Positions 5,201-29,026 of a stretch of 29,026 bases of DNA are shown piece by piece. Position numbers and translations under genes: made by a program. The notes below the pieces were generated by a model. It saw only the letters and a program-made list of their open reading frames with translations. It was not told the DNA's origin and did not search any database. The DNA is taken from NCBI GenBank assembly GCA_026770585.1, contig MU646595.1:96669-125694 (forward strand), written 5' to 3'. The first letter of the stretch is position 1, and each line of letters starts with the position of its first letter. The DNA comes from Baffinella frigidus. Lineage: Eukaryota; Cryptophyceae; Cryptomonadales; Baffinellaceae.

Positions 5201-8200
5201 ACACGCCGCGCCAGGCGGAGATGGCGGGGGCCGTGTGCGGGGAGCCGCGGTGCTACGTTGGCTTGGAGCGTGCAAAGATCGATGCGGATTGGATGTGGGT
5301 GGACGGTTCGGAGGTGAACTACCTGCCGTGGGACCGTGCGGAGCCTGAGAGCAATGAGACCAAGGTGGTGTTGGTCGGCGGGGAGGGCAAGGCGTGGCAC
5401 AGCTGGGGCAATGGGTCCAACACGTTCCCTGGGGTCTGCCTGTCGGACGAGGGGGTCAATGACTGGTGGAGCATGGCGGGGGGGGTGGAGTTGCTTCGTC
5501 CCTGGGGAGCTGCCGTTGCGCCTGATGGGAAGCGTGCTGTCGTGAGTGACATGGGGTTCCACAAGCTTTTCGTGGTGGAGCTCGAGACGGGGGAGAGGAG
5601 GGAACTTGCTGGACAGCGGTCGTCGGGGTCTGATGACGGCGAAGGCACTGAGGCGCGTTTCTGGCGCCCGCGCGGAGTCGCGTTTGCTCCTGACGGGCGC
5701 ACCGTCTACGTGGCGGACTCGGCGAACCACCTGATCCGCTCGGTGTCGTATCCCGAGGGTGTTGTCACGACGCTTGCCGGGAAGGTGCGGCTGGGCATTG
5801 GCCGCTCGGGAACTGCAGATGGCTCCGTGGCGTTGGAATGGGATGGTAAGTCTGGGACGAAGGTTGCCAGGTTCTCGGAGCCGCACGACGTTGCGGTGTC
5901 GCCGGACGGGCTGCTGGTCGTGGTTGCGGAATTCCGGACGAACAGGATCCGGGTGATCAGGTTGCAGGACGGGAGTGTGGTGACGCTTGCGAAGCGATGG
6001 GCGTCTCCGTTGTTCAGGATCGCGATGGGGGAGCAGTTTTCGCGGCCGCGCAGCATCGTGTTCGGGGTCGGGGGGATGTCTCTTTTGGTGGCGAACGCGT
6101 ACGGCGTGAGTGCTGTGTATCTCAACAACTACACCGTCGACACCATCCTCAACACAGACTGGGCTGCGCCTTTGGATCCATGGTATCCGTCAGGACTGTC
6201 GCCTTTGTCGGATGGGAGCCTCCTCGTGGCGCAGACGACCATGGCGGAACGCGACAACACGGTGTCAGTCCTGCTTGACGGAAAGCTCTGGAGCCTGCCG
6301 ATGATGATCAGGCCGGCATGCAAAGGCATGGAGTTTTCTGAGGAGGTGGTGATGGGCATCAGCCAGTTTCCGGGGTATGCTGCGGTAGCGGCGCTGCCGG
6401 CTGGGGGGCCAGTGGTGTTGACGGATCCGTGCCTCTCTGAGATCGCGATTGGGGTGCACACGCCGGGTGTGGTGCCGCCGTTGTCGGAGCTGCTTGACAA
6501 CGTGGTGTGGATCTCGTTTGCGCCGTGCAACGGGACTGTGTGGAACAGCAGCAGCGAGCGCGGGCAGTTTTTGGCAGCGTACTCGGCGTTCCTCTCCTTC
6601 AAGTGCCCGGGCATCGCGGTCAGTGCGTGCCCCTGGTCGACGCCCGACGCGTGCCTCGAGATCGATGCGCCGATATCGTGTGTGCCGTGGGCTCGGGAGT
6701 GGAGCGACTGGCAACACGAGGCGGAAAATGTGCTCAAGGTGTACGGTCTTCCCGCGATGCCGATTGCGAACGTGACGCTGGGCTGCTTGACAGGGTCCAG
6801 TGTCGGGTCGGTTGGCTACTGCGTGCCGTGTGCGGGGGGGTCGTACAGGGTTGGGAAGGGGGGTGAGGCGTGCGATGTCTGCCCGCCCTACAGCACATCG
6901 AAGCCCGGAAGCACGTCGCTTCATGACTGTTCATGCATGGCCGGGTTCGAAGGGAGCGCCAACACGACGTGCGATCAGTGCAAAGCAGGGGCGTTCAAGA
7001 GCACAGCTGGCGCCGAGAACAGCGCCGCCAAGAACGGGTGCGCGGACGGCAGCGCGGACGTCATCTTCAGCGAGAAGGTTGTCGGGTGCGACGCTGCGTG
7101 GTTGATGCCCGGCATTCTCAGCGGGGCGTCGGCTTGCTCACCTGGCTGGGATATCTGCGCCTCTGAGGCGGAGGTTGCTTCCAACAACATGACATCGGAT
7201 GCGTGCAGCAACCTCGCGCCCGAGGGAACGTTCTATGCCTCGCTGGAGTCGGGTCCCGTGGGTGTCGTGAAATGCTCGCCGGACGGACCTGGGCAGAGTG
7301 ATGGTTACAACGATATCATGGGGTGCGGCAAGTCCTCCTTGGACTTCAGGATCACGCAGGAACAGCTGGACTGTGGGGTGTTGACAAAGGCGCTCGGCAA
7401 TAGGAACGTTGGGACGTGGACCAGGCTGTCGGGTTCTGACTCGTATAAGGAATCAGCGACTGTCGTGAAGATTGGGTCCTCTCGCGGTGGAGTGCTGTGC
7501 TGCAGGAAGCCGGCAACGCCGCAGTGTGTTTCGTGCGAGGCTGGGACATACTCGATGATCGGTGCGGATGTGTGCACAAGGTGTCCTGCGTTCTCTCACT
7601 CTGTGCCGGGAAGCATCGTGGTGGCGGACTGCAAATGCGTGCCTGGCTACTTTGGAGCAGACGGGGCTGTATGCACGGAGTGTGCGCCGGGAACGTACCA
7701 GGATGGGCATGGCGCGGGCTCGTGCATGCCCTGTGCAGCAGGGACGTACTCAGGTATCATATCGTCTACGGTGTCCTCTCAGTGCAGCGCGTGCCCTGCC
7801 TACTCAACCTCGGAGAAGGGGAGCACCGTCCTGAGCAGCTGCACGTGTCTCGCGGGATACACTGGACCGGATGGGAGGGCGTCTGCAGTGTGCACCATCG
7901 GCCACTTCAAGGTGGAGACGGGGAGCAGGCCGTGCCTGTCGTGCCCAGCAGGGACGTTCTCGGGAGTGGAGGGGTCCTCGACATGCACATCTTGTCCTTC
8001 GCTCACAAATTCAAGTGCTGGGAGCACGACTCTGGATGACTGCATTTGCGTTCCGGGTTTCTTCGGGCCTGCTGGCGGGACCTGCGCAGGTTGTCCGGCG
8101 GGGTCGTGGTGTGCCGGCGGGGTGCAGAACACGTGCCCGGAATCGTCGTCTGGGGAGGAGGGGAGCAGCGCGGTGACGGATTGCAAATGCTCTCCGGGCT

Positions 8201-11200
8201 CGGTTGGGCCAGACGGGGGGGATTGCCATGTTTGCCCGCCGGACGAGTGGTGCGCTGGGGGCACTGAGAGCTTTGCTTGCGCTGCCGACTCCAGCTCGGT
8301 GGACGGGAGCTCTTCTGCGACGGCTTGCATCTGCAACGGAGGCTTTTCAGGGTCTCCGGGAGAAAACTGTACGCTGTGTCCGGCCGATGTTTTCTGTGCG
8401 AACGGCGTTGTGGGCATCTGTCCGACATATTCGTCAGCTGTTTCGGGAAGCGACGAGCTGATCGACTGCAAGTGCAGGGCTGGCTACTACGGGGTAAATG
8501 GCGGGGAATGCACAGTGTGCCCCGCGGGTTCCATCTGCTCTGGAGGCAGCTCCTTGGTGACTTGTCATTTGCACTCTGCGGCGCCGGCGGAGAGCAACTC
8601 GTCTTTGGCGTGTGTGTGCGAGCCGGGCTGGTACGGGCCGCGAGGCGGGGTGTGTCGCCAGTGCGAGGAGGGTGGTTGGTGCTCTGGAGGAGTGCGGAAT
8701 CTGTGTACTGCAAACAGCATGTCGCCAGTGGGGTCGTCTTCCGCTACGAGCTGCGTTTGCATCGGGGGCTTCGAGGCGACGGCTGGAGGGGCATGCTCGG
8801 TTTGTGCTGCAGGAACGTGGTGCAGTGATGGGATCAAACAAGAATGCGGAGCCAGCTCTTCGTCGCCGATACAGAGCAGCGTGGAGACGGCGTGCATCTG
8901 CGATCTGGCGTTCTTTGGTGCAGCTGGAGGGACTTGTGCAGGTTGTCCGGCGGGGTCGTGGTGTGCCGGCGGGGTGCAGAACACGTGCCCGGAATCGTCG
9001 TCTGCGGCGGAGGGGAGCAGCTCGGTGACGGATTGCAAGTGCTCTCCGGGCTCGGTGGGGCCAGACGGGGGGGACTGCCATGTTTGCCCGCCGGACGATT
9101 GGTGCGCTGGGGGCACTGAGAGCTTTGCTTGCTCTGCCGACTCCAGCTCTCCGCATGGGAGCTCTTCCGCAACGGCCTGCATCTGCGACGGAGGCTATGT
9201 AGGGTCTCCGGGGGGGTTGTGTACGCTCTGTCCGGCCGAATCATACTGTGCGAGCGGAGTCGTGAGCATTTGCCCGACACATTCGTCAGCTGCTTCGGGA
9301 AGCGATCAGATGACGGACTGCAAGTGCAAGACTGGATACTACGGGGAGGATGGTGGAGAATGCACTACGTGCCCCGCGGGCTCTTTCTGCTCCGGAGGCA
9401 GCTCCCTGGAATCTTGCCCTTCGAACTCTGCGGCACCGGCGCGCAGCAACTCTTCTCTGGCGTGCGTGTGCGAGCCGGGCTGGTACGGGCCGCGAGGCGG
9501 GGTGTGTCGCCAGTGCGAGGAAGGCGGATGGTGCTCTGGAGGAGTGCGGAACCTGTGTACTGCCAACAGCATGTCGGCAGTTGGGTCGTCGTCCGCTACG
9601 AGCTGCGTTTGCATCGGGGGCTTTGAGGCAACGGCTTCCGGAGCATGCTCGGCGTGTGGTGCAGGAACGTGGTGCAGAGAGGGGGTCAAGCACGCATGCA
9701 GAGTCAGCTCTTCGTCGCCGGTACAGAGCAGCGTGGAGACGGCGTGCGTCTGTGATCTGGGGTTCTTTGGGGCAGCTGGCGGGAGCTGTGCAGGTTGTCC
9801 GGCGGGGTCGTGGTGTGCCGGCGGGGTGCAGAACACGTGCCCGGAGTCGTCGTCTGCGGAGGAGGGGAGCAACACGGTGACGGATTGCAAGTGCTCTCCG
9901 GGCTCGGTGGGGCCAGATGGGGGGGACTGCCATGTTTGCCCGCCGGACGAGTGGTGCGCTGGGGGCACTGAGAGCTTTGCTTGCGCCGCCAACTCGAGCT
10001 CTCCAAACGGCAGCTCTTCTGCGACGGCTTGCATCTGCGACGGAGGCTTTGCAGGGTCTCCCGGAGGGACGTGCACGTTGTGTCCTTTCACAGTATTTTG
10101 TGCTAACGGCGTTGCGAGCATTTGCCCGATACATTCTTCAGCTGCTCTGGGAAGCGATGCGCTCACAGACTGCAGGTGCAAGGCGGGGTACTACGGTGAG
10201 GATGGCGGGGAATGCAATGCGTGCCCCGCGGGCTCTTTCTGCTCCGGAGGCAGCTCCCTGGAATTTTGCTCTTCGAACTCTGCGGCGCCGGTGGGGAGCA
10301 GCTTGCAGTTGGCGTGCGTGTGCGAGCCGGGCTGGTACGGGCCGCGAGGCGGGTTGTGTAGTCAGTGCGAGGAGGGTGAGTGGTGCTCTGGAGGAGTGCG
10401 CAACCTGTGTACCCCCAACAGCATGTCGGCAGTGGGGTCATTGTCCGCTACGAGCTGCGTTTGCATCGGGGGCTTTGAGGCGACGGCTGGAGGGGCATGC
10501 TCGGCGTGTGGTGCAGGAACGTGGTGCAGCGAGGGGATCAAGCACGCATGCGGAGCCAGCTCTTCGTCGCCGGTACAGAGCAGCGTGGCGACGGCGTGCG
10601 TCTGCGATGCGGGGTTCAGCGGTCCGGACGGTGGTGTGTGCACAGCCTGCGGGGCGGGCACGTACAAGTCTACCGACGGGTCGGGAGCTTGTGAGCCGTT
10701 CCCTGAAAGAAACTACTGTCCGCTAGTGGCTGCAACATCTCTGATGGAGGCCCTGAACTGCTCGGACCATTCGTGGTCGCCTGCGGGGAGCGACAGCATC
10801 AAAGACTGCTTGTGCGATCCTGGCCACACAGGCTCCAACGGCGGCAAATGCTCATCGTGCTTGGCGGGGACGTACAAGGAGGGGTCGGGATCGGGGTGGT
10901 GTGTGCAGTGTGGCGCTGGCACATACTCGGGGGTGCTTTCAGCGGGGACGTCTGGCACATGTGTGTCGTGCCCGGTGAACACCAACTCTCCTGGGGGCAG
11001 CTCGGAGAAGCTCGATTGCGGCTGCAACCCGGGATTCCGCCCGCAGCCCGTTCTGGGGGTATGGCACGGATTGATCCAGATCGTGACGGCTGAAGAGTAC
11101 AGCTTCACGACACGGTTCGAGGATGGGGCGCGGGTGTGGGTGGACGGGCAACTGGTGGCATCGTCGGGGACCACCGCAGCAGTGTTGAAGACGCTTGCCG

Positions 11201-14200
11201 CGGGGTACCACACCTTGCGGGCCCAGAGCTATCACTTGCCGGGGGGTGATGCGATGGTGGTGAAGATGCGCGGGCCGGACACCAGTGGGGTCGAGAAGCT
11301 GGTGAAGGGGTTCCATTATGCGACTGGGGATGAATCTTCGGGTGCGGTTGGGGTCGGCGTTGAGGAGGCGGAGTTGGCCGGGGGCTTCGTCGCGTCGTTT
11401 GTGTCTCACGCCACGCTGGAGTGGAGGGACGTCGCGCACGCCCCGGACTACTACAGCTACATGACTGTGACCAAGGGACTGTCTGTGGACGCGACGTACA
11501 CGACTGAGACGATCGACTACGAGAGCGAGACTGCGTTCAAGGCGCTGGCCCCCGGGTTTGCGGCGGCGCGGCAGGTGGGGGCGTGGCATGGGGTATTCGA
11601 GATCACTTCACCTGGCGAATACACCTTCGCGTTGACGTCGGACTACGGTTCGCACCTGTGGGTGGACGGGACCATGGTGGTTGACAACTCCGGTGGTCAC
11701 GACGTCCTCACGAGGAGTGGCTCGGTGTATCTCTCTCAGGGCTTTCACACTCTGCGGGCGGACTGGTACGCGCACTTGGGACTGGAGTTCGCACGATTCA
11801 TGCGTGTTATGTACCGCGGGGCCGACACGAGCAATGTGGACACGGTGGTGCGGGGGATGCACATCCGGGGCGACGGGGAGCTCTCCGCGGTGGTCAAACA
11901 AACTCGGATTGTTCCTGGGCTGATTGCTTCGTTTGTGAAAGACCTGGAAGTGCGGGTTGAGGATGTGAAGGATGTGTCGGACTTCTTCTACGCCGCTGTG
12001 GTGAGTCGTGGGGTGACGTTCAGCGAGATTTCAGTGGTGGAGGTTGTGGACTTCACGAGCGACGACCTGACGTGTGTTGGCTGCGAGGCGGGGACGTACA
12101 AGCCCGAGCGAGGGTTGGGCTCGTGCACGCCGTGCGGCGAGGGGAACTACTCAACTTCGATTGCTGCGGTCGCCGCGACTACATGCCTCAGCTGCCCTGC
12201 TAACTCGACGTCGGATGCCGGCAGCGGATCGATGGCGGCGTGTGGGTGTGTTCTCGGGCACTACGGGCCGAGCAACACTGAGTGCGGCGCGTGCGAGGCA
12301 GGCACGCACCAGGACCAGCGTAACCAGACGGGCTGCAATAAGTGCGATGCTGGGACCTACTCTGATGCTATCGCCGCCAAGTCCGCTCAGCAATGCATGG
12401 CGTGCCCTGCAAACTCTGACTCTCCGTCTGGAAGTGTGCTGAAAGAGGCCTGCACGTGCAAACCGGGGTTCCCGGGCCAGCACGGCGGGCCCTGCACAGC
12501 GTGCGTGGCAGGCACCTACCAGATTGGAAGCGGACCTGGAGTGTGCACCCCGTGCGAGGCGGGTAAGTACTCGTCGCGGGTCGGGTCTCCGGGGGAGGAG
12601 AGCTGCCTGCGCTGCCCTTCCAACTCTCAGTCGGGCGTCGGGAGTGGCGATATCGATCAGTGCGCGTGCCTTTCTGGGTATGGCGTGTCCTCCGGCAGCG
12701 GCTTCGCTGGACAGGTTCCAAGCCATGAACCCTCAACCCTTAACCCTTTACCATCAACCATCAACCCTAATCCATGAACCTTTGCCCTAAACCATGAACC
12801 TTTACACCTGAACCCTTAACCCTGAATCTGAGCTCTTAACCCTAAACATTACCCCTGAACCCTGAACCCTAAACCACGCGCTCTGAGCCCTGAACCCTTA
12901 ACCTTAAACCATGCGCCCTGAACCCAGATCCCCAAACAACAGGTTGTGGGGCACGTGAGCGGGCTGATAACCGTTGAGCGCGCTGGGAACTACTCCTTTC
13001 ACACCTCCTCGCTGGATGGGTCGCGCCTGTGGGTCGATGGGGTGATTCCCAACCTCTAAACCCTACACCTTAAAATCTAAACCCTCAACCTTCAACCCTG
13101 CACCCTTGACCCTGACCCCTAAACCCTAAACCTTACCCTAAACCCTAAACCCTAAACCCTAAACCCTAAACCCTAAACCCCAAACCATAAAACCTAACCC
13201 CTCAACCCTCAACCCTCAACCCCACACCCTGCACCGTAAACCCCAAACCCTCAACCCCAACCCAGGTGCTGCTGGTCAAGAACGGCGGGCCCAACACCCC
13301 TGGGGCACTCTCCGGAACACTCCACCTCTCGCAGGGCTTCCATGCCATGCGTGCCGATTGGTTCGACCCTAATCTCAAACCCCAAAACCTGAACCCTAGC
13401 CTCTAGACTCACAACCCTGAACCCTAAGCCCTAAACCCCACACCCCACACCCTAAACCTTAAACCTCATACCCTGAACCCTAAACCCCAATCCCTAAACC
13501 CTGTACCCTGAACCAGGTTCGAGCTCTCGGAAGGGGCGACCTTTGTAGTGAAGTACTCCGGACCCGACACGGGAGGCGAGTCGGTGCTCGTGCAGGGCGC
13601 CCATTTATCGCTGGACGTGGAGCCCGTCGCGGGTTATGAGCCTGTGGCAGGCGTGCTGTGGAACGGGACGAACTCGACGAATGCGACGAATGTCACGGAC
13701 GAGGAGAGGTAAACCCTCAACCTCAAACCCTAAAACCCAGCCCCTGAAACCTAGCCCCCAAACCCTGAACCCTCAACCCTCAACCCTCAACCCTAAACCC
13801 TAAACCCTAAACCCCCAACCCTGAACCTCACACTTTAAACCATAAACCCTCAATCCTCAACCCTCAACTCCAAACCAGGTATTATGTGCAGCCGAGCGCC
13901 AGGGTTGTCCCGAGAACGTACTCGTGGGCGCGTTTGGCGGACGGCTTCAAAGCGTCGTTCATTCACGACGCGACCATGGACGGGAAGGGTATGCAGTATG
14001 ATGAGGAGTACTGGGGGACCGTGGCTGTTGGGAAGGGGCTGGGTGTGACCGCGGATGGTGTGGTTGCCGTCATCGACTTTGGGAGTGAGGCGGAGTTGAT
14101 GGCGCATTTCCCGGGGTATGAGCGCTCATCCATGGTGGGAGTATGGGAGGGTGTGTTTCAGATTCAGGAGGGGGGCGAGTACACGTTCTCAACGAGGTCG

Positions 14201-17200
14201 GACGACGGGTCGCACCTGTGGGTGGACGGGGCCAAGGTGGTGGACAACTCGGGCCTGCACGGGGCCCGGACGCGCTTTGGCTCTGTGGAGCTCCAGTCGG
14301 GATGGCACACGCTGCGGGCCGACTACTTTGATGACAAAGGCGGCGACGTGATGCAGGTCACTACAAAACCCGAAACCCCAAACCGTACGCCTTGAACCCC
14401 ACGCAGCTCACATCCGCCCTTCCCGTCACTTTTGGGCAAACTATGATAACCTCATGCTGCGCGGGTATTGAACTCGAATCTCAAAACCCGAACCCTGAGA
14501 CCCAAATCAAACCAATGCCGAATGCAGGTAAAATACGCTGGGCCAGACACTTCCGGGCAGAGCCTCATGGTGCGCGGGTCGCACATCCTCCCGTGGAATG
14601 CCACGCTCGAGGGGGGCGTTGAAGCGGATTCCGAAAAGGGGAACGCGACCGGGAAGGTGACCCTCCAGCCCCAAACCCGCTAAGTAACGAAGATGTCTCT
14701 CTAATCCCAACCCGGACGCGCGGCAGGGCTGCTTAGAGAGCTTAGAGAGAGAGATTATTACTGACGTGTACAGTCGACGCAGGTGCGGGTTACCTCGGGG
14801 TTCGTGACATCGCTGGTCCGCTCCCCAGGCCTTTCCTAGGAGAATGGACGGCGTGTTAGTACTACTAATAAAGCTGTGCGGTGCTGGCGCTGGTTGTTTG
14901 GCAATAAATTACGAATCTCTCTACGCAGGTGCGGTTAACCTCGGGGTTCGTGACGTCGCTGGTCCGTACCCCGGGCATCTTCCTCTCGGAACTCGCCCTT
15001 CTCGATGAGTACTACCCCCCAACCCTAAACCCTACACCCTAAACCCTCAACCCTAAATTCTAAAACCTAAGCCCGAAACCCCAAGCCCTAAACCCTAAAC
15101 CCTAAACCCTAAACCCTTAAACCCTAAACCCTCAATCATCAATCCTCAACCCTCAACCCTCAACCCTAAACCAACTCCAAAACTGCGCAGGTACTACCGC
15201 TTCGCAACGTACAGCAGGGGCGTCGCAGTCTCCTCAATCAGCCTGACCGACGATCTGATCATCTACAAGGAACCGCTCTGTTTCCCGTGCCCGGCAGGGT
15301 GCGCGCCCTCACCCTACACCCTGAACCCTGAACCCTCTACCATCAACCCTCAACCCTCAAATCTCAACCCTCAACCCAAGCCCTTATCAACCAGGGGTCT
15401 GGGCAAAACCCCTGCACCCATACACCCTGCACCCTAAACCCCGAACCCTGGCGCACAGGACGTTCAAAGAGCGCGCAACGACGACGCCCTGCATCCTTTG
15501 CAACCGCGATACGTACTCCGGGGCCGTGGCCGCCACCAAGGAAGACACGTGCGCTGCGTGCCCGGCATTCCACGTCTCGCCGCTTGGGAGCCAGCAGTCA
15601 GGTGAAGAAACCCTGTACCCTAGTTCCCATCTGTTCCGACTTTCCTAGCACAGAAACTATCCGACACCACTATACGGTATCCCACCAAACAGGTCGGATC
15701 CTAACTCTACTGGTTTGAAATCCTGAACTTTGAAACCTGAACCCTTAAACCCTGAACCCTTCACCAGGCAACTGCACGTGCAGGCCGGGCACCTTGCCCA
15801 ACTCTGCAGTAAACCCACACCCCTAAACCCTAAACCCTCAACCCTAAAACCTACACCCGAACCCCGAAACCCCAAACCCCAAACCCCAAACCCCAAACCC
15901 CAAACCCCAAACCCCAAACCCCAAACCCCAAACCCCAAACCCCAAACCCCAAACCCCAAACNNNNNNNNNNCCCAAACCCCAAACCCCAAACCCCAAACC
16001 CCAAACCCTACACCGCAAACCCTGAACTCTGTACCCTTAACCCTAAACCCCAAACCGCAAACCAGGGGGAGTGTCAGCTGTGCGGAGACATCGATTGCTG
16101 GAACTGGAACGAGGGGTCAGCACCCCTCAAACCCGAACCTAAACCTTAAACCCTAAACCCTAAACCGAAGAACCCAAGAACCCGAACACCGGAACCCGAA
16201 AACCTGAACCCGAAAACCTGAACCCGAAAACCGGAACCCGAAAACCGGAACTCAAAAACCTGAACCCGCAACGCTGATACAGGCAAGATCGCTGGGACTG
16301 GGATTGGGACCCTGCGGAGCAGATCGACGAAGACGAGGAACAGTGTCGCGACTTTGGCCTGGGGTACCCTTCCGCACCCGTCAACACCCTCCCACACCCT
16401 CCCACACCATTGTTTACCCTTCCACACCCTCCCCACACCCTCCTTCATCCTCCCACACCCTCCCGCACCTTTCACACCCTCCCACACCCTCCCACACCCT
16501 CTCATATCCTCGCACACCCTCCCACACCCTCCCGAACCCTTGCACGGGCGATGCAGCGTATCGGAGAGAGTTGTTGTTGTCTCGAGAAGAGACAGTGCCC
16601 GGGGAGTGACGGTATGCCGGCGAGAGTTTTTGGTCTCCCCGAGAGTGACAGTGCCCATGGTGCCATATGAGGTATTTTTTGAGGGCATGACTACCAACAG
16701 TAAAATGACTGTGTCCCGCAGATGCTCGGGGGTCGTGGACACGACTCCCGTGATCTACACAGACTGGAATTACAATGATTGTATATTCCCTTGACAAATA
16801 CGTGATCTACTGGGACCGACATTAAATTCACTTGTGTCACGCAGATGCTCGGGGGTCGTGGACACGACACCCGTGATCTACTGGGAGGACGACGGGGTTG
16901 ATGACGACCCTGGCGAGCCTATCGACAACTCCTCGGTGCCGATGAATCAGCCGTGGGGCGCAGCAATGCACCCTGACGGCCGCCACGCCATCATTTCCGA
17001 CGCGGGGTGGAACGCGCTGCTCATCATGGACCTGGAGCACGGCAACGTCTCGCTCTTCGCCGGCCGCCCCTGGGACCGCCCGGGGTCGTACGACGAGGTG
17101 GGCGCGCGCGCGCGCTTCTTCACGCCGCGCGGCATGGCCCTCTCCCCGGACAACGACACCCTCTGGGTAACCCTCAACCCTGAACCCCCAACCCTCAACC

Positions 17201-19786
17201 CTCAACCCGCAACTTAAGAACCTGATCACCCCAATTTCGTAAACCCGACGCCCGAAACTCGAACCCCGAATCGCGGGACAGCCCCCCAAGTCATCAGCCC
17301 CAAGCCCTGAACCCTAACCCCCTGGACAGGTTGCGGACTCGGACAACCACTGCATCCGCACGGTGTCCCTCCGCACACGGCGCGTCACGACCTACGCTGG
17401 CTTCGTCCAGGCCCCGACCGACGTGGGAGTGCCCGGCACGCAAGATGGCGTCATCGCCTCTGGGTAACCAACCCCCAATCCCCAAACCCCCCAAACCAAC
17501 CCCTAATCCCTATACCCTGATCCCTGATCCCTGACCCCGCGGGTAACCCCCAATCCCTCAACCCTGAACACCAAACTTTAATCCATATACCCTTATCCAT
17601 TATCCCTAACCCCTAAATCCCTAAACTAGGTGGGATTGGAAGTCGGAGCGCGCGCGCTTCGACACGCCCTACGACGTCGCGGTAATCCCCATCCCCAAAT
17701 AAACCTGCCTAATCCAATCCTTATCCAAACCCTGCCTCATCCGAATACGATGGTACTCAGCCTTGCCAGATTTGGTACTGTGCGGTGATCTCCATCCCGA
17801 AACCCAGAAAACTTCACCCATGGTACTCAACCTGACCAAATTAGCTCCCGTTCTGACCCCTAGTAGTTAGAACGGCAATTAGTGTGCGTATTTACGGCAC
17901 CGTACTAACCGAGTCCTAAATCCTGCGTAGGTACCGTACTAACCGAATCCCTGAACCAGGTCTCGCCGGACGGGCTGCTGGTCGTCGTCGCGGACTTCGC
18001 CAAGCATCGCATCCGTGTCATCCGCACGTCAGTCCCGAAACTCGAAACCCCAAAACCGAAACCCTCAACCCGAAAATCGAAACCCGAAACCCGAAACCCA
18101 AAACAGATTCGACGGGACGGTCGCGACGATCGGGAAGCGGTGGGGCGTGCCGTGGCTCGGTATCCAATCCTTCATCACTAAACTCTCAGCCCTAAGCCCC
18201 AAAACCCAAGCCCCAAACCCCAAACCCCGAACTCCAAACCACAAAACCCTAAATCCTAAACCCAGAACCCTAAACCCCACACCCCAGATCTCAAACCCCA
18301 AACCCCAAACCCCAAATCCCCGATCCCAAACCCCAAACCCTAAATCCCAAACCCCGCACCCTGTACCCCACACCCTGATCCCGCAACCCGAAACCAGGTA
18401 TCATTGCGATGGGCGCGACGTTCTCGAACCCACGGAGTGTGTCGTTCGGACACGACGGGCAGTCCGTGCTTGTCACGGACACGTACGGCGTGCGCCAGGT
18501 CTCTTCTTCTTATTTATTACTAATACTGGCCCTGGGTCACCCCTGTGAGCCTTTAGTTGAGTGATGCATACGTCTGTGAGCCTGAAGAAGCATGCGCCAG
18601 GTACATTTCAACAACTGCCGATTTGTTTTAAGACACCCTAAACCCCAAACCCTAAAAAATAAACACTACACCTTGGACACTAAAGAACACAAACCCTAAA
18701 CCATGAACCCCACACCCCAAACCCTAAACCATAAGCAATACACCTTAAACCTTCCATAACGCAACCGCTAAACCCAACCCCCAAACCCCAAACTCCAAAC
18801 CCTCAACCCTGAACCCACACCACAAACCCTTGACAGGTGCATTTCAACAACGCGTCAGTGCCGCTCATTCTCGACCCTCAACCCTCAACCCTAAACCTTA
18901 AACCATAAACCCTAAACCATAAACCATAGAATTCAACTCCGAAACATTCAACCCTCAAGAACACAAACCTTCAACCCTCAACCCCAAACCCTTAACTCTC
19001 AACCCTCAACCCTCAAATCCAAACCCTTGACAGGTGCATTTCAACAACGCGTCAGTGCCGCTCATTCTCGACGTGTACTTCCCGTGGTTCTCTTCCTCGG
19101 TAAACCCAAACCCCCAAACTCTAAACCCTAATCCCCAAACCGTACTCCCTAAACACGAACCCCTAAACTCTAAACAGTACCTCCTTGGACGGCTCTGTGC
19201 CCCACCCGAAACATGAAATCCAACACAAACCCCTAAACCCTAAACCCCAAACTCGAAACCCCAAACCTCAAACCCCAAACCCAAAACCCAAACCCAAAAC
19301 CCAAAACCCAAAACCCAAAACCCCAAAACCCCAAAACCCCGAACCCCAGGTCGGTTCAGCGAGTGACGGCTCTCTCATCATGGCAATCTCGGTTGAAACC
19401 CTAAACCCTGAACCATAAATCCTTAAGAATAAAACCTGAACCCTACACCCTAAAACCTCCCTCAACCCTCAACCCTCACCCCTCAACCCTCAACCCTCAA
19501 CCCTGAACCAGGCCAACAAACTCTCGCTCAACGTCATCGGACGCTACACCGGAGATCCTCAAGACCTCCAGGTACAAACTCCAAACCGCATATATAAATA
19601 TTATGTACATATCATTATGTTAAAGAAACTCTCTGTCTATACGTTGAAGCCGGGACCTGATACTGAATCATTCTACTGTTTGAAACAGGTTGTTGAGGAC
19701 TCGATCTCGGGGCAGTGCAGCGAGTGCCGGTTTACCCTCAACCCCAAACCCTAAACCCTAAACCCTGAACCCTGAAGCCACTGACC

Positions 19787-19860
<74 letters not shown>

Positions 19861-22800
19861 ACCCTAAACCCTAAACCCTAAACCCTAAACCAGCGACCCG
19901 AACTCTGCGCGCGACTTCTGGGCCCTGGCTGGCTTCCGCGGTACACCCTCTCCCATCACCCCTACACTTTTTACACGCCCCGTCCTCTACATTACATGCG
20001 CCGTCCTCTTCATTGAAAGCTCATTCTTTTTCATGACATGCACCTTCTCTTCATTCAAAGCCCCTTCCTCTTCTTTACATGCCCCTTCTCTGCATTCACA
20101 ACCCGGTGCATTCAAAGCCTCTTCAGTGAACAAACCTTCCCATCCAGGCAACGCGGCGCTGGTTGTGGACTGGTCCGAGACGAAGGTCAACCCTAAACCC
20201 CAAACCCCAAACCCTAAACACCAAACACCAAACACCAAACACCAAACACCAAACACCAAACAATTAACCCTCAACCGTAAACCCTACACACTAAACACTC
20301 AACCCAAAACTCTGAACCTTTAGGTGGTGGTCACCGACCCCTGCAACGCCAACGTCCACACCTACGACATCGAGTAACCCCCCCCCCCTCCCCAATCCCC
20401 AATTTGGCCATCCTACACGGTATTCAGTCCATCCCACACACACACCACACGCACCAAACCCCAAACCCCAAACCACAATCCCTCAATCCCTCAATCTCTC
20501 AATTCCTAACCCCGAATCCCCCAACCCTAACCAGGTACGAGATCACGCCGCCAGTCAAGCCGCCTGCCCCCACGTCTGCCTCGGTACACCCTCCACCATG
20601 CACCTTCAACTCAGCACCAAGATCCATGCACCATGGACACTGCACCATGAACACTCAACACTGAACACTGGACGTGCAAACTGAACACTGAACACAGAAC
20701 ACTCAACGATGCACCATGGACACTGATCACTGAACACTGAACACTGAACACTGACCACTGAACACTGAACACTGAACACTGAACACTCAACACTGAACAC
20801 TGAACACTGATCACTGATCACTGAGCACTGAACACTAAACACTGAACACTGAACACTGAACACTGAACACGGAACACTGAACCCTTAAACCCGATAACCC
20901 GATAACCCACACGCAGGTTATCCGGGTGTTGCACGCAAACAGGTTCTCGCCACTCAACTTGAAACCCGCAACACTAAACCCGAAGTACGAAACACGAAGC
21001 CCGAAACACTAAACCTGAAACCCAAAATCCGACACCCGAAACACTGAACTCGAAACACGAAACATCAAACCCGAACCCCTAAACACCAAACCCGAAACCC
21101 CAGACACTAAATCCGACAACCGAAGCACGAAACTGGAACCCCAAAACACCAAACCCGAAACCCGACGCACTACACCCGAAACACGACACACTAAACCCTT
21201 AACCCAAAACCCTGGAACAGGTTCGCGCCGAACAGGGACCCGGCCTTTCTCATCGCGCTCGAGCGCTGGTTCTCGCTCCGGTAAATACCCGAAAATCGAT
21301 ACCCGAACCCCCCCAAAACGGAATCCTAAACCCACACACAAAATCTCTTTGTATATATACGTCTCTCTCTCACACACACACCTGAAACCCCACCCCACAT
21401 GGAACAGCTGCATTGAAGTGGACGGTGTTGCAGTGCTCTCTTTATCGCTCTCTCTCTCTCTCTCGCTCCCTCTCACTCTCTCTCGCTCTCTCTCCTTCCC
21501 ACCCGAACCACGTCCATCCTGAGCCTCAAGCCCCAACACCAGGTGGAACAGCAGCATCGAAGTGGACGCCTGCGAGGTCCAAGGCGTAGGCTGCTTCGAG
21601 ATGGCCATCGATGCGCGCCTCGGGGAATATTTGACCATCAACCATTCGGAGTGGTCAAACGCCTCGATCGGCTTTCTGAGCGTCTACGGCTTCCCGCGGG
21701 TACTCACCCTGAACCCTTTTTTTTTCAACCCTAAACTTGAAACACGTTTCTCAAATCCAAACCCTTGTGTAAACTCTAAGCTCTAAAAGCTTGTCCCTGA
21801 ACCCTACACTTTTTTTCAAACCCTAAACATTCAAACCCCTGTCTAAACCCTACCCCCAAACCCCAAACCCCAAACCCCAAACCCCAAGCCCCAAACCTCT
21901 AAACCCCAAAACCATCGACCCTACACTCTTAACCCTAACCCCTAAACCAAATCCTACAAACCAGGTGGACGTGATCAACGTGACAATAACCTGTGCATCG
22001 GGGCACGCTGCAGGGTCCTGCCGGCCTTCTCTGCACGTGCGCGCGCGGGTTCTCCGCGCCGAACGGTACACCCTACACCCGGTTTACTACTGTATCATTT
22101 GCTGAACTTCAACCATAAACCCGAAACCCTAAACCTTAAACCCTTACCCCTAAACCCCACACCCCACACCCCGACGCAGGCAATTGTACGGAATGCCCAG
22201 CGGGGACATACAAGCCGACTGCGGGGCTTGCAGAGTAAACCCCAAAACCCTAAACCCTGAACCGTAAACCCTCAACCCCGAACCCTAAACGCTGAACCAT
22301 GAACCATGAACTCTCAACCCTTAACCCTCAACCCTTCATCCTCAACCCTGAAACCTAAACCCTGAACCCCAAACCCCAAACCCCAAACCCTGAACCCTGA
22401 ACCCTGAACCCTGAACCCTGAACCCTGCACCCTAAACCCTAAACCCTAAACCCCAATCTCTGATCCCGAAACCCTGAACCCTGAACCCTAAACCAGGTGC
22501 ACGCTGTGTCCGGGGGGCACGTACCGGCAAGAGCTAGGCGGCGCGCACGTGCAGGTTACGACCCGCCTCGTTTCCTGGCGCGTAGCGGTCGTGGTTCCAC
22601 CTCGCTCTCCCCCTGCACGTGTTGTCACTGTGAAACCTCGCTGTGAGAATCGACCGGACAGGTTATGAGGCGCGTGGTCAAGAAGCAGGGTCTCACTTGC
22701 GTTTCCCCCTTGCGGGCGTGCCATGCGTGCCCGAACAACTCCACTTCGGAGACAGAGGGGAACGTCGCCGAGGTGCGTCGTGCAGCCTCCCCTAAACCCT

Positions 22801-25800
22801 AAACTCCACACCCTAAACCCTAAACCCTATGCCCTCAACCCTCAACCCTCAACCCTCAACCCTAAACCCTAAACCCTGAACCCTGATCCATGAACCCTAA
22901 ACCCTGAACCCTGAACCCTGAACCCAAAACCCTAAACAAAACCCTAAACCCTGAACCCTGAACCCTAAACCCTGAACCCTGAACCCTGAACCCAAAACCC
23001 CCAAAACCTAAACCCTACACCCCAAACCCCTATACATCCTCCCCTGCACCCAACCCCCAACCCCCTTGCACCTCACCCCTCACACCCCAACCCCATCATC
23101 CCCATCCATCTGATACTTAACCCGAATGCCCAATCCCCAATCCCCTTACCCTCTCCCCCACATCCAGGGCAACTGCACGTGCTCGGCGGGCCACACGGTT
23201 GATGGTCAAAATGATGGTCAAACAGACGACGGCGAGGAGGGTGCGCGCGCGTGCCTCGCGTGCTCTACCGGGACTTACAAGGAGGCTGTCGGCTTCGGCG
23301 CATGTAACCCCTAGCCCCCAAACCTGAAACCCGAAACCCTGAAGCCTAGGTAAACACTCAACCCTAAACCCCAAACCTTAAACCTTAAACCCTAAACCCT
23401 AAACCCCAAACACTCGACACTCAAGACTCAACACTCAACTCTCAACACTCAACACTCAACACTCAACACTAAATCATAAACTTCTCCCCCCAGATCCCAA
23501 CCCCCAAACCCCTCAACCCAAAACCCCCAACCAGGCACCAAATGCCCATCCGGGACATACTTACCCCACCTCGCAGCCCTCTCAGAGCGCGAGTGCCTCT
23601 CCTGCCCGGACAAGTACTCCTCCCCATGGGGCTCCTCCACGGTAAACGAAACCCTAAACCAAACCCAGCACCCCAAACTCTCAACCTTGATCCCTGAACC
23701 CTAAACTCTAAACCCTAAACCCTGATCACTGATCCCTGAAAGCTAACCCCTTCACCCTTAACCCGAAACCCTTAACCCGAAACCCCAATCCTCAAATACC
23801 AAACCCTGATCTCTGAGCTATAAACCCTAAATCCTAAACAATAAAGCAGGTGCACGACTGCGTTTGCGCCAAGGGCTTTTCAGGCGTTGAGGTTTCCAAT
23901 CCATCCACCCCCAAACCCTATTCCCGAATCCCCAAACCCTAAACCCCCAGTAAATAAATAAATAAATCATAGTAAATAAATAAATAATAAAACTGAAACG
24001 CAGGCGCACGGGCCGTGTGTCGCGTGCGCTCCCGGGAGCTACAAGGACGTCATCGGGGCCGGCGAGTGCACCAAGTGCCCGGCCAACACGTATTTGTCTG
24101 GGAACTCGTCTGTCTCGTCCGGCGCGTGTAAGCCGTGCCCCGGGTAACCCCGAAACCCGCACCCCAACAAGCAGAACCCTAAATCACATGAATAAATAAG
24201 TAATAAACCCAAAACCGGAATCCAGGTCGACGATGTCGGATGTGGGAAGTTCTGAGTGCACCAGCGCCGTCGCGGAGGTCACTCATAAACCCTAGACCCT
24301 GAACCGTCAATCCTAACCCTCAACCCTCAACGCTCAAACCTAAATCCCAAACCCTAAACCCTAAACCCTAAACCCTAAACCCTAAATTCCAAACCCTAAA
24401 CTCTCTCAACCCTAGACCCTACTTTCGAGCCTGTATCCCGAAACTCGACGTCCGACACTCGAAACCCGAATTCCAAATTTCGAATCCCGAAACCCAACAT
24501 TTACAACCCAACCCCCAAACCAAAACCCTCAAGCTTCAACCAACAGGTGAAGGCATCGTCATCGATCGAGACGGACATGGCGTCCTTCAACGCAAACGAG
24601 CAGACGTACCCCAACACCCAACCCCAAACCCCTGAACCCTGAATGCTCAACCCCTAAACGCTGAACCACTGACCCAAGCTGGACACCCTGAACCAAACCC
24701 CAAACCACACACCCCAGACACCAAATCCCACACCACAAACCCCAGACACCCAAACACCAAACACCAAACACCAAACACCAAACACCAAACACCAAACACC
24801 AAACACCAAACATCAAATACCAAACACAAAACAAAAAATACCAAACCCCAACCCCCAGACCCCCAAACACCAAACACCAAACACCCAACACCAAACACCA
24901 AACTAGGTACCTGAACGCGTACGCGACAGCCGGCGGGATTGCCCCCTCGATGGTCACGACCGAGTCCAAGACGAAGGTCAAACCCTACCTCTGCCTTGGT
25001 CTATGTGGTCATCATACCAATTTGGTGAGACCAGGTTCATTTCTGCTTCTAAGTTGACGGATTTGTACCGCACACCCAGCGTGTCAACTTAGGAATAGGC
25101 AACCAACGGTATGCGACGGCCGGCGAGGTGCCCCCCTTGATGGTCACGACCGAGTCCAAGACGTAGGTGCCCTACATCCCAGACTCTAAATCCTATCCAG
25201 ACCCCTACACGGTACACCCTACATCCTACACCCTACACCCTACACCCTATACCCTATACCCTACACCCTACACCCTAAACCCCCCACCCCAAACCCTAAA
25301 CCCTAAACCCCCACCACAGGTCCTCGCGACGATCATCCACAACGTCACGTTCACCGCCCCCAGGTCTCCCGAACCCCTACTGAACCCCTGCTGAACCACA
25401 AACTATCCTGAACCCCAAACTCTCCTGAACCCCAAAATCTCCTGAACCTAAAACTATCCTGCACCCCAAACTCTCCTGAACCCCAAACTCTCCTGAACCC
25501 TAAACTCTCCTGAACCACAATCTCTCCTGAACCCCAACCCCTCCCGAACACCCTTTCTAACCCCCACCGCCCCCAGGACCCTGGCATCGAAGGTGGTCAC
25601 CTCTGTCTCGTCGGGCATCTTCGGCAACTACCTCAAACAGATCCTCATCAACGCTGGCCTCCCCGTCTCGACGGTTTGTCCGAATCCCGAATCCCGAAAC
25701 CCGAATCCTGAATCCCGAATCCCGAAGCTCGAATCCCGAATCCCGAAAGTGCTGAACTCGAATCCCGAAAGTGCCTCCGAAACCTCAACGTTGAACGTGA

Positions 25801-28800
25801 AACAAGCAACCCTGAACCATAAACCCCAGACCCTAAACATGAAACCCTAAACCCCAGACACTAAACACGCTAAGCCCTGAACCCTAAACCTCAAACCTCG
25901 AATCCTTCACCCAGATGTCGAGCGTGGCGATCAGCTGTGGCTCTGGAGTGTTCCCAGTCGGGGACGCGTGCGAGGTCTGCCCTTCAACCCCTAAACCCCA
26001 AACCCTCACAACAAACAACCTTACATCCTAAACCATGAACCTTACACCCTAAACCCTGAACCCCAAATCCTAAACCCCAAATCATAAACCACAAACCTTC
26101 TTACCCCAAACCCTAAATCCCAAACCCTAAACCCTAAACCCTAAACCCTAAACCCTGAACCCTACACCCTAAACCCTAAACCCTAAATTAGGTCTGCCCG
26201 GTCACGACATTCAAGACTCTCGCGGACAACACTTCGTGCCTGGCCTGTCCCGTAAACCCCAACCCCTAAACACCAAACACCAAACACCACACCCCAAACA
26301 CCAAACACCAAACACCAAACACCAAACACCAAACACCATACACCAAACACCAAACACCAAACACCAGACCCCAAACCCCACACCCCAAACCCCGAACCAC
26401 AAACCCCAAACCCCAAACTCCAAACCCAAAACCCAAAACCCAAAACTTAAACCAGGCGCACGCAACCACCGAGACCACCTTCTCGACGCTCCACGCCCAG
26501 TGCCACTGCCTCCCCGGCCACTTCACGGAATCGTTCGACACCGCACCTGTCGCGGCGGGGAACACCGACCCGCACTTCGTGGAGAACCTCGCGGGGTACT
26601 TGATCGTCGAGACCAAGAAGACCTGGGTACAACCCTACAACCATGACCCTAACACCACACCCAGAAGAACGGGGTACAACCCTGAAACTCTAAACTCAAG
26701 CGAAGAGGGAACAGCCCACCAACCACATCTCTGAAACCACATCGCGGGGTACTTCATCGTCGAGAGCAAGAAGAATTGAGTACCCCTGGAACCCTGAAAT
26801 CAATCCTCAACCCAACCCTGAAACCCGAAACTGAAACGAGGAGGGAACAGCCCAACACCCACAGCCGTTAAAATACAATCCGCACCCCCAATGATGTGAC
26901 CAACCCAAACCCCCAACCCCCAAACCCTAAACCTGATCCTGAAAAAAACTGGACCTAATCCACCCTGAACCCTCAACCTTAACCTCATTCACCCTAAACC
27001 CTAAACCCACTCTGAACCCTCAACCCACCCTCAACCTTCAACCTTCACCAGGTGGATGCGGAGATGGACTGTGTGAAGCGCGGCGGGCACCTCGCGACTA
27101 TCAACTCCCAGGTATTTCACTCGCGGCTGGACATGTGACTATTTTGAATGTGGTGTTGTATGAATTTGTACCGGTATTCTCAACCCTAAACTGCATTCCA
27201 CATGTAGTACATTGCCATCGGTGTGAGGGTAAGGTCAAGTTCAGATGTTTTGCGCGCTTGGTGAGCGTAGACATTGAACAGCCAAAGGTGCTAAACCCTA
27301 AATCCCAAACATTAAACCATAAACACACAACCCGAACCGCACGTCCCAGGGAGAGCAAGACATGATCGACTACATGACGCGCGACATCATGACCACCGAC
27401 GGATCACTCCGCATCCGGATCGGGCTCAACGACAAGGCGTCCGAGGGCACCTGGGAGTGGATAGCCGACGGTTCTGCCACCAAGTAACATCCCCCCCCCA
27501 AACAATCTCTGCAACGGACACTTTGACCCTGAACCCTGAACCCTACCCCTCACCGGCCAAACCCCATCCCCTGAACCGTGAACACAAAATCCTCACCTTT
27601 CCAACCAGGTCTACCAACTGGGGCCTTCAACCCTGAATCCTAGAACCTGAACCCTACACCTTAAATCCCAGAGGCCAAACTCTAAACCCTACCCCAGACC
27701 GGCCAAAAACCCAAACCCTCAAACCTTAACCCTGCACCGCAACCCTCAACACCAGGTATTTACACTAAATCCCTAACCCTCAATGCTAAACCCTACACCG
27801 AAACCAGGTACACCAACTGGGCGGCCTCGCAGCAGAACAAGCTTTCGTCGCAGGAAAACCCCACACCCCAAACCCCAAACCCCAAACCCCAAACCCCAAA
27901 CCCCAAACCCCAAACCCCAAGCCTCAAACCCCGCACCGCACACCCCAAACCCCAAACCCCAAACCCTGAACCCCACACGCTTCAAGCAGGACTGCGGGCA
28001 GCTGTACACGCGGGACGACACGACGCTCACCTGGAACAATGACGAGTGTTCCGCGCATCTCTCGTGCATCCCTACACCCGACCACCCGACCCTCAACTCT
28101 AAACCATCAACCCTCAACCCAACATCCCAAACCATGACAACTGTTCCACGCATCTCTCGTGATACCAAAATCCTGGACCCTGCACCCTGACCCCTAAACC
28201 CCCCAACCTAAACCTTACACCTTGAGCAATGAACCCTACATTCTGAAGCCGTGTAGCTCTCGTACATGCGTACACCCTGAACCCTACACTCTGATCCCAC
28301 AACCCTAAGCCCTAAACCCTAAACCCTCAAACCCACAACCTAACCCTACACCCCTAAACCCCACACCCTAAACCTTAAACCAGGTACATGTGCCAGATTA
28401 TCCCCGAAGAACACACCGCGCTCAACGCTGACTTCACCTGCTCTACGTGCCAGGTCCAAATTCCTAAACTCGAAACCCGAAACCCGAAACCAGAAACCAC
28501 AAACCAGACATCAGAAACCATCAAACCCCGACGATGCGCCCAATCCCAAACCCAAAACACTGAAAACGTAATGCAAACACCTCAACCAGGCTGACTTCTA
28601 CTGCGCCGGCGCCGCCGCCCCCCGCCCTTGCCCGGTATGCCCCCCACCTTCAACCCTGAACCCTCCCGAAACCCGATCCCGTCAAGCCGAAACCCTCAAC
28701 TCCAAACCCTCCCCAAATGAACCCTCCCTCAAACCCGAAACCCTGCACCACGAACCCCCCCCGAAATCCTGAAGCATGAACCCTCCCCAAACTCTGAAGC

Positions 28801-28897: not shown

Positions 28898-29026
28898 GTC
28901 ACCCCTAAACCCCAAACCCTCACCCATCACCCCTCACCCCTCACCCCTAAATCCTAAACCCCAAACCCCAAACCCCAAACCCCAAACCTCAAACCCCAAA
29001 CCCCAAAACCCAAACCCCAAACTCCA
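28898..29026 (+). repeat. Start of intron 58, heptamers
   Basis: Begins GTCACCCC and runs off the window as CCCAAAC and CCCTCAC heptamers. No coding signal seen. Confidence 0.75.

What the first reader, a model, noticed from the sequence alone, without database searches (positions are those of the whole stretch)
12715..28383. Introns built from sense-oriented telomere-like heptamers that supply their own splice signals
Nearly every intron is filled with CCCTAAA-type heptamers, always with the C-rich strand on the sense side. That orientation contains neither GT nor AG, whereas its complement TTTAGGG contains both GT (across units) and AG. When the array directly follows an exonic G it makes the donor G|TAAACCC or G|TAACCC (13709, 15809, 17167, 17464, 19100, 20374, 22235, 23304, 24144, 26252). 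Variants such as CCCTAACC offer CTAAC branch-like sites, and CCAG closes the intron. So a telomeric array can become an intron with almost no mutation. Origin by telomere-repeat capture at breaks, or by telomerase-templated repair, is inference.
Basis: partly seen in the sequence, partly recalled or inferred. Interest (0 to 1): 0.92.

Follow-up and report, generated by a model that had tools for sequence, protein, structure and literature searches.

The report
Introns made of telomere-like repeats
In an unnamed eukaryote, most introns of one giant gene are arrays of a telomere-like seven-letter repeat that seem to have been inserted into coding sequence, copying a few letters of the insertion site and so creating splice sites; if right, this is an unusual route by which genes acquire introns.

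Summary
The window is part of one + strand gene: a curated model has 57 complete introns (56 GT-AG, one GA-AG), a 16,318-nt CDS and no stops. 54 of 58 introns (57 plus one cut by the window end) carry CCCTAAA-type units; CCCTAAA occurs 144 times in sense, 0 in antisense, with strong 7-nt periodicity. The 382-Mb genome holds 53,120 overlapping occurrences of three tandem CCCTAAA. In nine loci anchored by a helicase domain 17 of 19 array blocks have the same orientation.

The mechanism needs correcting. Arrays are bracketed by direct repeats of the target more often than chance gives, also in noncoding DNA: 260 bp of array between 20-bp repeats. So the donor GT mostly looks like duplicated exon; only 3 of the 10 listed donors need the array's T. 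Paralogous halves share 2 intron positions and differ at 26.

Best reading: insertion at staggered breaks, then selection for the spliceable orientation. Telomeric origin is not shown: the host telomere could not be identified. No RNA was available.

The parts
1..29026 (+). part of one gene (both ends open): Ephrin_rec_like/cysteine-rich repeats, PA14, C-type lectin, NHL; 57 complete introns in the curated model
   Evidence: codon-model Viterbi, curation, Pfam on the two long exons
4804..12714 (+). 7.9-kb exon without introns, holding the intron-free NHL paralogue (about 5455-6480)
   Evidence: open frame, alignment with the intron-rich copy
12715..28821 (+). intron-rich stretch: 51 complete introns, of which 16364, 19572, 19941 and 22555 have no C-rich unit
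13361..13516 (+). intron bracketed by GGTTCGA on both sides; insert is wholly array (CCCTAATC...CCTGAACCA)
   Evidence: also without a gene model; no intron at this position in the paralogue
25975..26191 (+). intron bracketed by AGGTCTGCCC (10 bp); insert TTCAACCCCTAAA...CCCTAAATT
25364..25576 (+). intron bracketed by CACCGCCCCCAGG (13 bp); body is a 17-nt repeat CTGAACCCCAAACTCTC
20943..21220 (+). intron bracketed by AACAGGTTC (9 bp exact; 13 of 14 with one mismatch, by eye)
18160..18397 (+). intron bracketed by GGTATC; absent in the NHL paralogue
15009..15190 (+). intron bracketed by GTACTACC
14357..14527 (+). intron bracketed by ATGCAGGT; position shared with 3313-3404 in the other copy; few C-rich units (2)
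12715..12942 (+). intron bracketed by ACAGGTT; position shared with 2276-2363 in the other copy, 3' ends alignable
   Evidence: the start 2276 was chosen over the automatic 2279 by homology
17167..19893 (+). NHL-region introns of the second copy (17167, 17464, 17682, 18028, 18160, 18499, 19100, 19392, 19572, 19730), none of them in the first copy; 19730 falls in an alignment gap
18499..19033 (+). intron holding a perfect 53-bp repeat (18823 and 19020) of intron end plus exon start, 144 bp of mostly array between
24977..25319 (+). intron holding a diverged copy (25105-25166) of the upstream exon end
14657..14928 (+). intron holding a diverged copy (14783-14837) of the downstream exon start
16364..16844 (+). 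intron holding a copy (16722-16758) of the downstream exon start
15809..16065 (+). one of three listed introns whose donor needs the array's T (downstream exon begins GG); contains a 10-N gap
27854..27989 (+). the only non-GT donor (GA-AG), bracketed by GCAGGA; placed by hand

Best explanation
These are spliceosomal introns gained by DNA insertion. Short G-poor tandem arrays, mostly telomere-type CCCTAAA heptamers and their variants, were inserted at staggered breaks or nicks in exons (and elsewhere), duplicating a variable stretch of target. Where the duplicated target contains GGT or AGGT, the left copy becomes the donor (G|GT...) and the right copy the exon start; the acceptor AG is the target's own AG, or an A ending the array plus the target's G. 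With the C-rich strand as sense the body is rich in C and A and almost free of GT and AG, so insertions in this orientation splice out cleanly and survive; the other orientation is filtered out in genes but persists outside them. Later slippage homogenises a variant unit in each intron, and tandem duplication of exon edges lengthens some introns. Shown here: array content, orientation bias, direct repeats above chance, presence/absence between paralogues. Inferred: splicing itself, the break-repair step, selection as the cause of the bias, and any link to telomeres or telomerase.
For: Direct repeats at junctions against 20,000 re-pairings: automatic model n=55, mean run 3.16 vs 2.77, P 5e-5, >=6 bp 6 vs 1.99; curated n=57, 3.95 vs 3.20, P 5e-5, >=6 bp 12 vs 3.67. 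Without gene models, heptamer blocks only, loosest of three settings: window 46 blocks 5.02 vs 4.34, P 2e-4; 40 blocks of other loci 4.92 vs 4.11, P 4e-4. Single cases, no chance control: noncoding L026, 260 bp of array between GTACCTGTT[C/G]AGGCGGTGGG copies; L039 14 bp, L044 11 bp, L024 10 bp, L042 9 bp. Paralogue halves: 6 and 24 introns, 2 positions shared. Orientation: 144 vs 0 in the window; 17 of 19 blocks in 9 helicase loci, one of them without blocks; DUF3638 gene 10 C vs 1 G block. L026 and L028, where no strand gives a convincing gene, hold both orientations. First exon base G in 52 of 57, GT in 33 of 57. Scale: 27,288 + 25,832 overlapping hits.
Against: Repeats of 6 bp or more are in 12 of 57 introns; the rest show no more than the GGT consensus, which any intron may show. 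The automatic model on 21 array introns of other loci was not significant (2.76 vs 2.62, P 0.18). The no-model test fails in the window at the stiffest setting (P 0.30; one search likewise), where blocks are fewer. One of its seven window hits of 7 bp or more (17168, CGGACAAC) is not flush with the array. The signal is not special to heptamers: 3 of 9 array-poor introns have repeats of 6 bp or more, and 12 non-heptamer blocks of other loci also exceed chance (P 0.004), among them a CT-rich insert between 19-bp repeats. Curation was by eye, with repeats in view, and could favour them. The intron-free copy might have lost introns. One G-oriented block lies in the DUF3638 gene and two in L048. 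No RNA evidence.
Confidence: 0.6

Rival explanations
1. One reading: a telomeric array lands after an exonic G and itself supplies donor T, branch site and acceptor, without target duplication.
For: 15809, 23304 and 26252 have G|TAAACCC or G|TAACCC donors and a downstream exon that does not begin GT.
Against: 11 of 14 GTAA donors are followed by an exon beginning GT, 33 of 57 introns overall; locus-specific repeats; G precedes the array word in 14 of the first 100 non-C places listed (weak).
Confidence: 0.15
2. Introner-like transposable element: a mobile DNA element with telomere-like sequence inserts with target duplication and co-opts a splice site.
For: Target duplication and splice-site co-option as in published introners (PMC9860276, passages); abundance in the genome.
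Against: 57 introns of this gene share no 20-mer that breaks the 7-nt period at 5 or more places, so they are not copies of one element; repeat length varies from a few bp to 20. Transposase and inverted repeats were not sought.
Confidence: 0.12
3. Retroposition of repeat RNA (telomeric-repeat RNA or excised intron RNA) by telomerase or a LINE-type reverse transcriptase at nicks, giving variable duplications; intron RNA here is C-rich like a telomerase template.
For: Repeat lengths up to 20 bp; array flush with the repeats in L026; telomerase-linked insertion at breaks is published for mammals (PMC2246262, passages).
Against: No enzyme or RNA was tested; CT-rich inserts with the same signature need another template.
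Confidence: 0.2
4. Secondary filling: introns arose otherwise (old introns, or tandem duplication of exon edges) and heptamers expanded inside them later by slippage.
For: Nine of 114 flank/intron comparisons score 12 or more (0.09 expected), eight of them at or within 5 nt of the exon edge; units vary along and between arrays.
Against: In the clearest cases the array runs from one repeat to the other with nothing else between (L026 4679-4978, window 13361); positions differ between paralogues; arrays also lie where no gene is apparent.
Confidence: 0.25

Closest known systems
Daphnia neointrons from staggered double-strand-break repair (PMC4202315, passages; review PMC3443670, passages)
   Same: insertion with short direct repeats of the exon at opposite ends (4-12 bp there), mostly GT-AG, further repeats inside the introns
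   Different: here the insert is mostly a telomere-type heptamer array, in one orientation, in most introns of the gene, with the repeat widespread in the genome; no population data
Introners (PMC9860276, passages)
   Same: target duplication and splice sites recruited from it; mass intron gain
   Different: no shared element sequence among the introns of this gene; variable duplication length; inverted repeats not examined
Interstitial telomeric sequences inserted at breaks in mammals (PMC2246262, passages)
   Same: telomere-type tandem arrays at internal sites, some with target duplication
   Different: there duplication is a minority class (6 of 130 rodent, 4 of 25 primate loci); no intron formation in the passages seen; here the host telomere is not established
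Plant telo boxes and the telomerase-at-breaks model (PMC3022908, passages)
   Same: telomere motif spread in and near genes, proposed to come from telomerase acting at open 3' ends
   Different: single motifs mainly in 5' regions and slightly below expectation in introns; here arrays make up the introns

Membership tests
Spliceosomal introns | GT-AG borders and continuous open frame after removal | tested here: met
   56 of 57 GT-AG, one GA-AG; 16,318-nt CDS, 0 stops; 21965-22013 unresolved
Spliceosomal introns | removal seen in RNA | not testable with these tools
   no RNA data
Intron gain by staggered-break repair | direct repeat of target at both ends | tested here: met
   as an excess over chance carried by a minority of introns; not significant in the 21-intron replicate nor in the window at the stiffest no-model setting
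Intron gain by staggered-break repair | intron-less allele with one copy of the target | tested here: inconclusive
   paralogues lack the introns but are diverged; the empty-site search did not complete
Introner elements | near-identical copies at many sites | tested here: not met
   0 shared non-periodic 20-mers among 57 introns of one gene; not tested genome-wide
Introner elements | terminal inverted repeats / transposase | not tested
   none sought
Interstitial telomeric sequence | tandem unit equal to a known telomere repeat | tested here: met
   CCCTAAA is the commonest 7-mer class and CCCCAAA the second; a passage of PMC7789003 gives TTTAGGG/TTTGGGG as telomere motifs of Amoebophrya, the same two units on the other strand
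Interstitial telomeric sequence | unit equal to the host's own telomere | tested here: inconclusive
   of 20 contig starts 16 read N, 1 partly N, 3 readable ones do not open with arrays in the first 70 bases; 7 places with >=15 perfect units, not shown to be ends; TTAGGG comparison did not complete

The most novel reading that the evidence does not exclude
A eukaryote makes introns on a genome scale by inserting telomeric-repeat DNA (made by telomerase or copied from telomeric-repeat RNA) at staggered breaks: target duplication plus a repeat whose C-rich strand is by nature free of GT and AG gives a ready-made intron in one of two orientations. Telomere maintenance would then be a source of introns.
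Probability: 0.3. Interest if true: 0.93.

Novelty: new variant of a known kind. Interest (0 to 1): 0.8.

Why it matters
Where introns come from is an old open question, and many gained introns carry no clue to their source. Here the source sequence is recognisable, target duplications can be read, and the repeat is so common in one genome that the model can be tested by counting. It also gives a simple reason for strand bias: only one strand of a telomere-type repeat lacks GT and AG. Six searches of an open-access library gave capped lists of 15-30 papers out of 27-483; no listed title or abstract start, and none of the passages I read, described telomere-type arrays as introns; PMC3443670 (intron-gain review) and PMC4202315 (Daphnia) hold no word beginning 'telomer' in their main text. 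A paper outside that library or further down the lists could still describe it.

Tried and rejected
Virus or phage origin: no match for the intron-free NHL protein in viral contigs or phages; two array-plus-acceptor patterns gave no viral contig; these tools may leave out records near the window's own genome. RNA families in the window: none at gathering score. U1 snRNA in the genome: no match, but none of the 14 control genomes rang either, so uninformative. Copying between introns: none found. The first automatic models merged short exons. Curation: acceptor 21964 put the frame out and was replaced by 22013, unresolved. The no-model test at its first, stiff setting showed nothing in the window. 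Pattern CCCTAAACCNNGG was badly chosen (it misses CCAGGT) and is not used. Not answered: CCCTAAACCNGGT, CCCTAAACCAGG, the NHL protein in the own genome.

Rows left out: L041 from block counts (AT-rich, no units); L002, L005, L008 (overlap neighbours) and blocks with N or near locus ends from the no-model test; introns outside 60-700 nt, with under three C-units or with any G-unit from the 21-intron replicate.
Full report
WHAT IS THERE. The window lies at C291:96669-125694 of an unnamed 382,457,362-base assembly in 1364 contigs. It is part of one + strand gene for a very large cysteine-rich protein; Pfam finds Ephrin_rec_like, PA14, C-type lectin and NHL domains in its two long exons. A codon-model Viterbi with GT-AG introns gave a frame without stops, as did later runs with other settings. 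A curated version has 57 complete introns plus one cut by the window end, median length 213, CDS 16,318 nt, no stops, phases 0/2/1 = 33/19/5. One donor is GA (27854), and 21965-22013 could not be resolved.

ARRAYS AND ORIENTATION. Intron sequence is 40% C, 33% A, 16% T and 10% G; exons are 37% G. The match at lag 7 is 0.56, at 14 0.53, at 21 0.51. CCCTAAA is the commonest rotation class, then CCCCAAA, CCCTGAA, CCCTCAA, CCCGAAA. CCCTAAA occurs 144 times, TTTAGGG never. 54 of 58 introns have a C-rich unit; those without are 16364, 19572, 19941 and 22555. TRF agrees.

BEYOND THE WINDOW. CCCTAAACCCTAAACCCTAAA occurs 27,288 + 25,832 times in the genome, overlapping hits counted (backward control 14 + 13). 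To get genes with a known strand I used Helicase_C: 10 places, fetched as 2.4-kb stretches. Over all 10, sense C-units 179, G-units 28. L041 is AT-rich with no units and was left out of the block count; of the other 9, blocks of three or more units were 17 sense-C and 2 sense-G, both in L048; L046 had none. A DUF3638 gene (L024) has 10 C blocks and 1 G block, and L023 8 C and 0 G on its better-scoring strand. L026 and L028, where no strand gives a convincing gene, hold both orientations. Most stretches asked for by coordinate were withheld: 26 of the first 30 read all N. This is a sample, not a census.

JUNCTIONS. The spliced site is G|G in 43 of 57 and G|GT in 27 of 57, against 12% and 2.2% of CDS positions. 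Following the published introner test (PMC9860276, passages), I compared each intron's two ends with re-paired ends. Runs are longer in true pairs: automatic model 3.16 vs 2.77, curated 3.95 vs 3.20, both P 5e-5. The longest exact repeats are 13, 10, 9, 8, 8 bp, then five of 7 bp; 21 of 57 are at least 5 bp, 12 at least 6. The automatic model on 21 array introns of other loci gave no significant excess (P 0.18); at least one of its borders looks wrong, since L024 4525 shows AGGTGCACTG on both sides with another acceptor. A test needing no gene model compares the flanks of array blocks. With all blocks it gives P 2e-4, 8e-4 and 0.30 in the window and 2e-4, 2e-4 and 4e-4 in other loci at three settings; an earlier version at the stiff setting showed nothing in the window and 2 vs 0.00 repeats of 10 bp or more elsewhere. 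Restricted to blocks with three or more heptamers, the P values are 2e-4, 1.2e-3, 0.30 and 4e-4, 6e-4, 8e-4. Non-heptamer blocks of other loci exceed chance as well at the two looser settings (12 blocks, P 0.004; 8 blocks, P 0.005), not at the stiffest (4 blocks, P 0.49).

CLEAREST INSERTIONS. L026 4679-4978: GTACCTGTTCAGGCGGTGGG, then 260 bp of array from TAAACCCTAAACCC to AACCCCT, then GTACCTGTTGAGGCGGTGGG. No gene is apparent there, which argues for a DNA-level event independent of splicing. Window 13361: GGTTCGA, CCCTAATC...CCTGAACCA, GGTTCGA; here donor GT and exon start are target copies, and acceptor AG is the array's A plus the target's G. L026 also has a CT-rich insert between 19-bp repeats, so the process is not limited to heptamers. 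L039, L042 and L044 come from a repeat search without a chance control, in which L040, L045 and L048 gave nothing and the rows for L047 had no heptamers in the insert.

GAIN OR LOSS. Two halves of the gene align over 1,305 columns (597 identities). The first has 6 introns, the second 24; two positions coincide (2276/12715 and 3313/14357) and 26 do not, 3 of these in alignment gaps. The first half's NHL part is free of introns. Loss through reverse transcription is not excluded for it; target-type repeats favour gain for the introns that have them.

EXON-EDGE DUPLICATIONS. Nine of 114 flank/intron comparisons score 12 or more (0.09 expected from other introns); eight lie at or within 5 nt of the exon edge, one (14357) does not. 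18823/19020 is a perfect 53-bp repeat with array between. L045 holds several degenerate copies of a helicase exon (read by eye). This resembles intron gain by tandem duplication, reviewed in PMC3443670 (passages).

WHY ONE ORIENTATION. 43 of 57 introns have no AG in the 38 nt before the acceptor; flipped bodies would give 3 of 57. GT in the first 38 nt: mean 0.47 vs 5.0. So a splicing filter could explain the bias without directional insertion. This is inference.

TELOMERES. The two commonest units, CCCTAAA and CCCCAAA, are the complements of the motifs TTTAGGG/TTTGGGG that a passage of PMC7789003 gives for Amoebophrya telomeres. But the host telomere is unknown, and only 7 places hold 15 or more perfect units, none shown to be an end. 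Precedent exists for telomeric insertions at breaks (PMC2246262, passages) and as a model in plants (PMC3022908, passages).

VERDICT. Most likely these introns were inserted with target duplication, as in Daphnia neointrons (PMC4202315, passages), with a telomere-type array as filler and a splicing filter on strand.

Noticed in passing
L026, array block 7301-7363 and its flanks: A CT/CA-rich simple-sequence insert between perfect 19-bp copies of GTTGTGCCGACCTGCCAAC: same signature, different filler.
   Followed up: partly
L045 (sense about 1200-1830): Several degenerate copies of a helicase exon edge inside one intron region (read by eye).
   Followed up: no
window 27854-27989: A GA-AG intron, the only non-GT donor; a passage of PMC7789003 mentions unusual GC/GA donors in dinoflagellates.
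   Followed up: no
window 4804-12714: A 7.9-kb intron-free exon beside intron-dense paralogous sequence; intron loss by reverse transcription is possible.
   Followed up: partly
window, all 57 donors: Donors lack the usual GTAAGT: +5 is G in 8 of 57 and +6 is C in 31 of 57, so U1 pairing may be relaxed or changed; the U1 search was uninformative.
   Followed up: partly
window 15962-15971: Ten-N gap inside a CCCCAAA array; array length there is uncertain.
   Followed up: no
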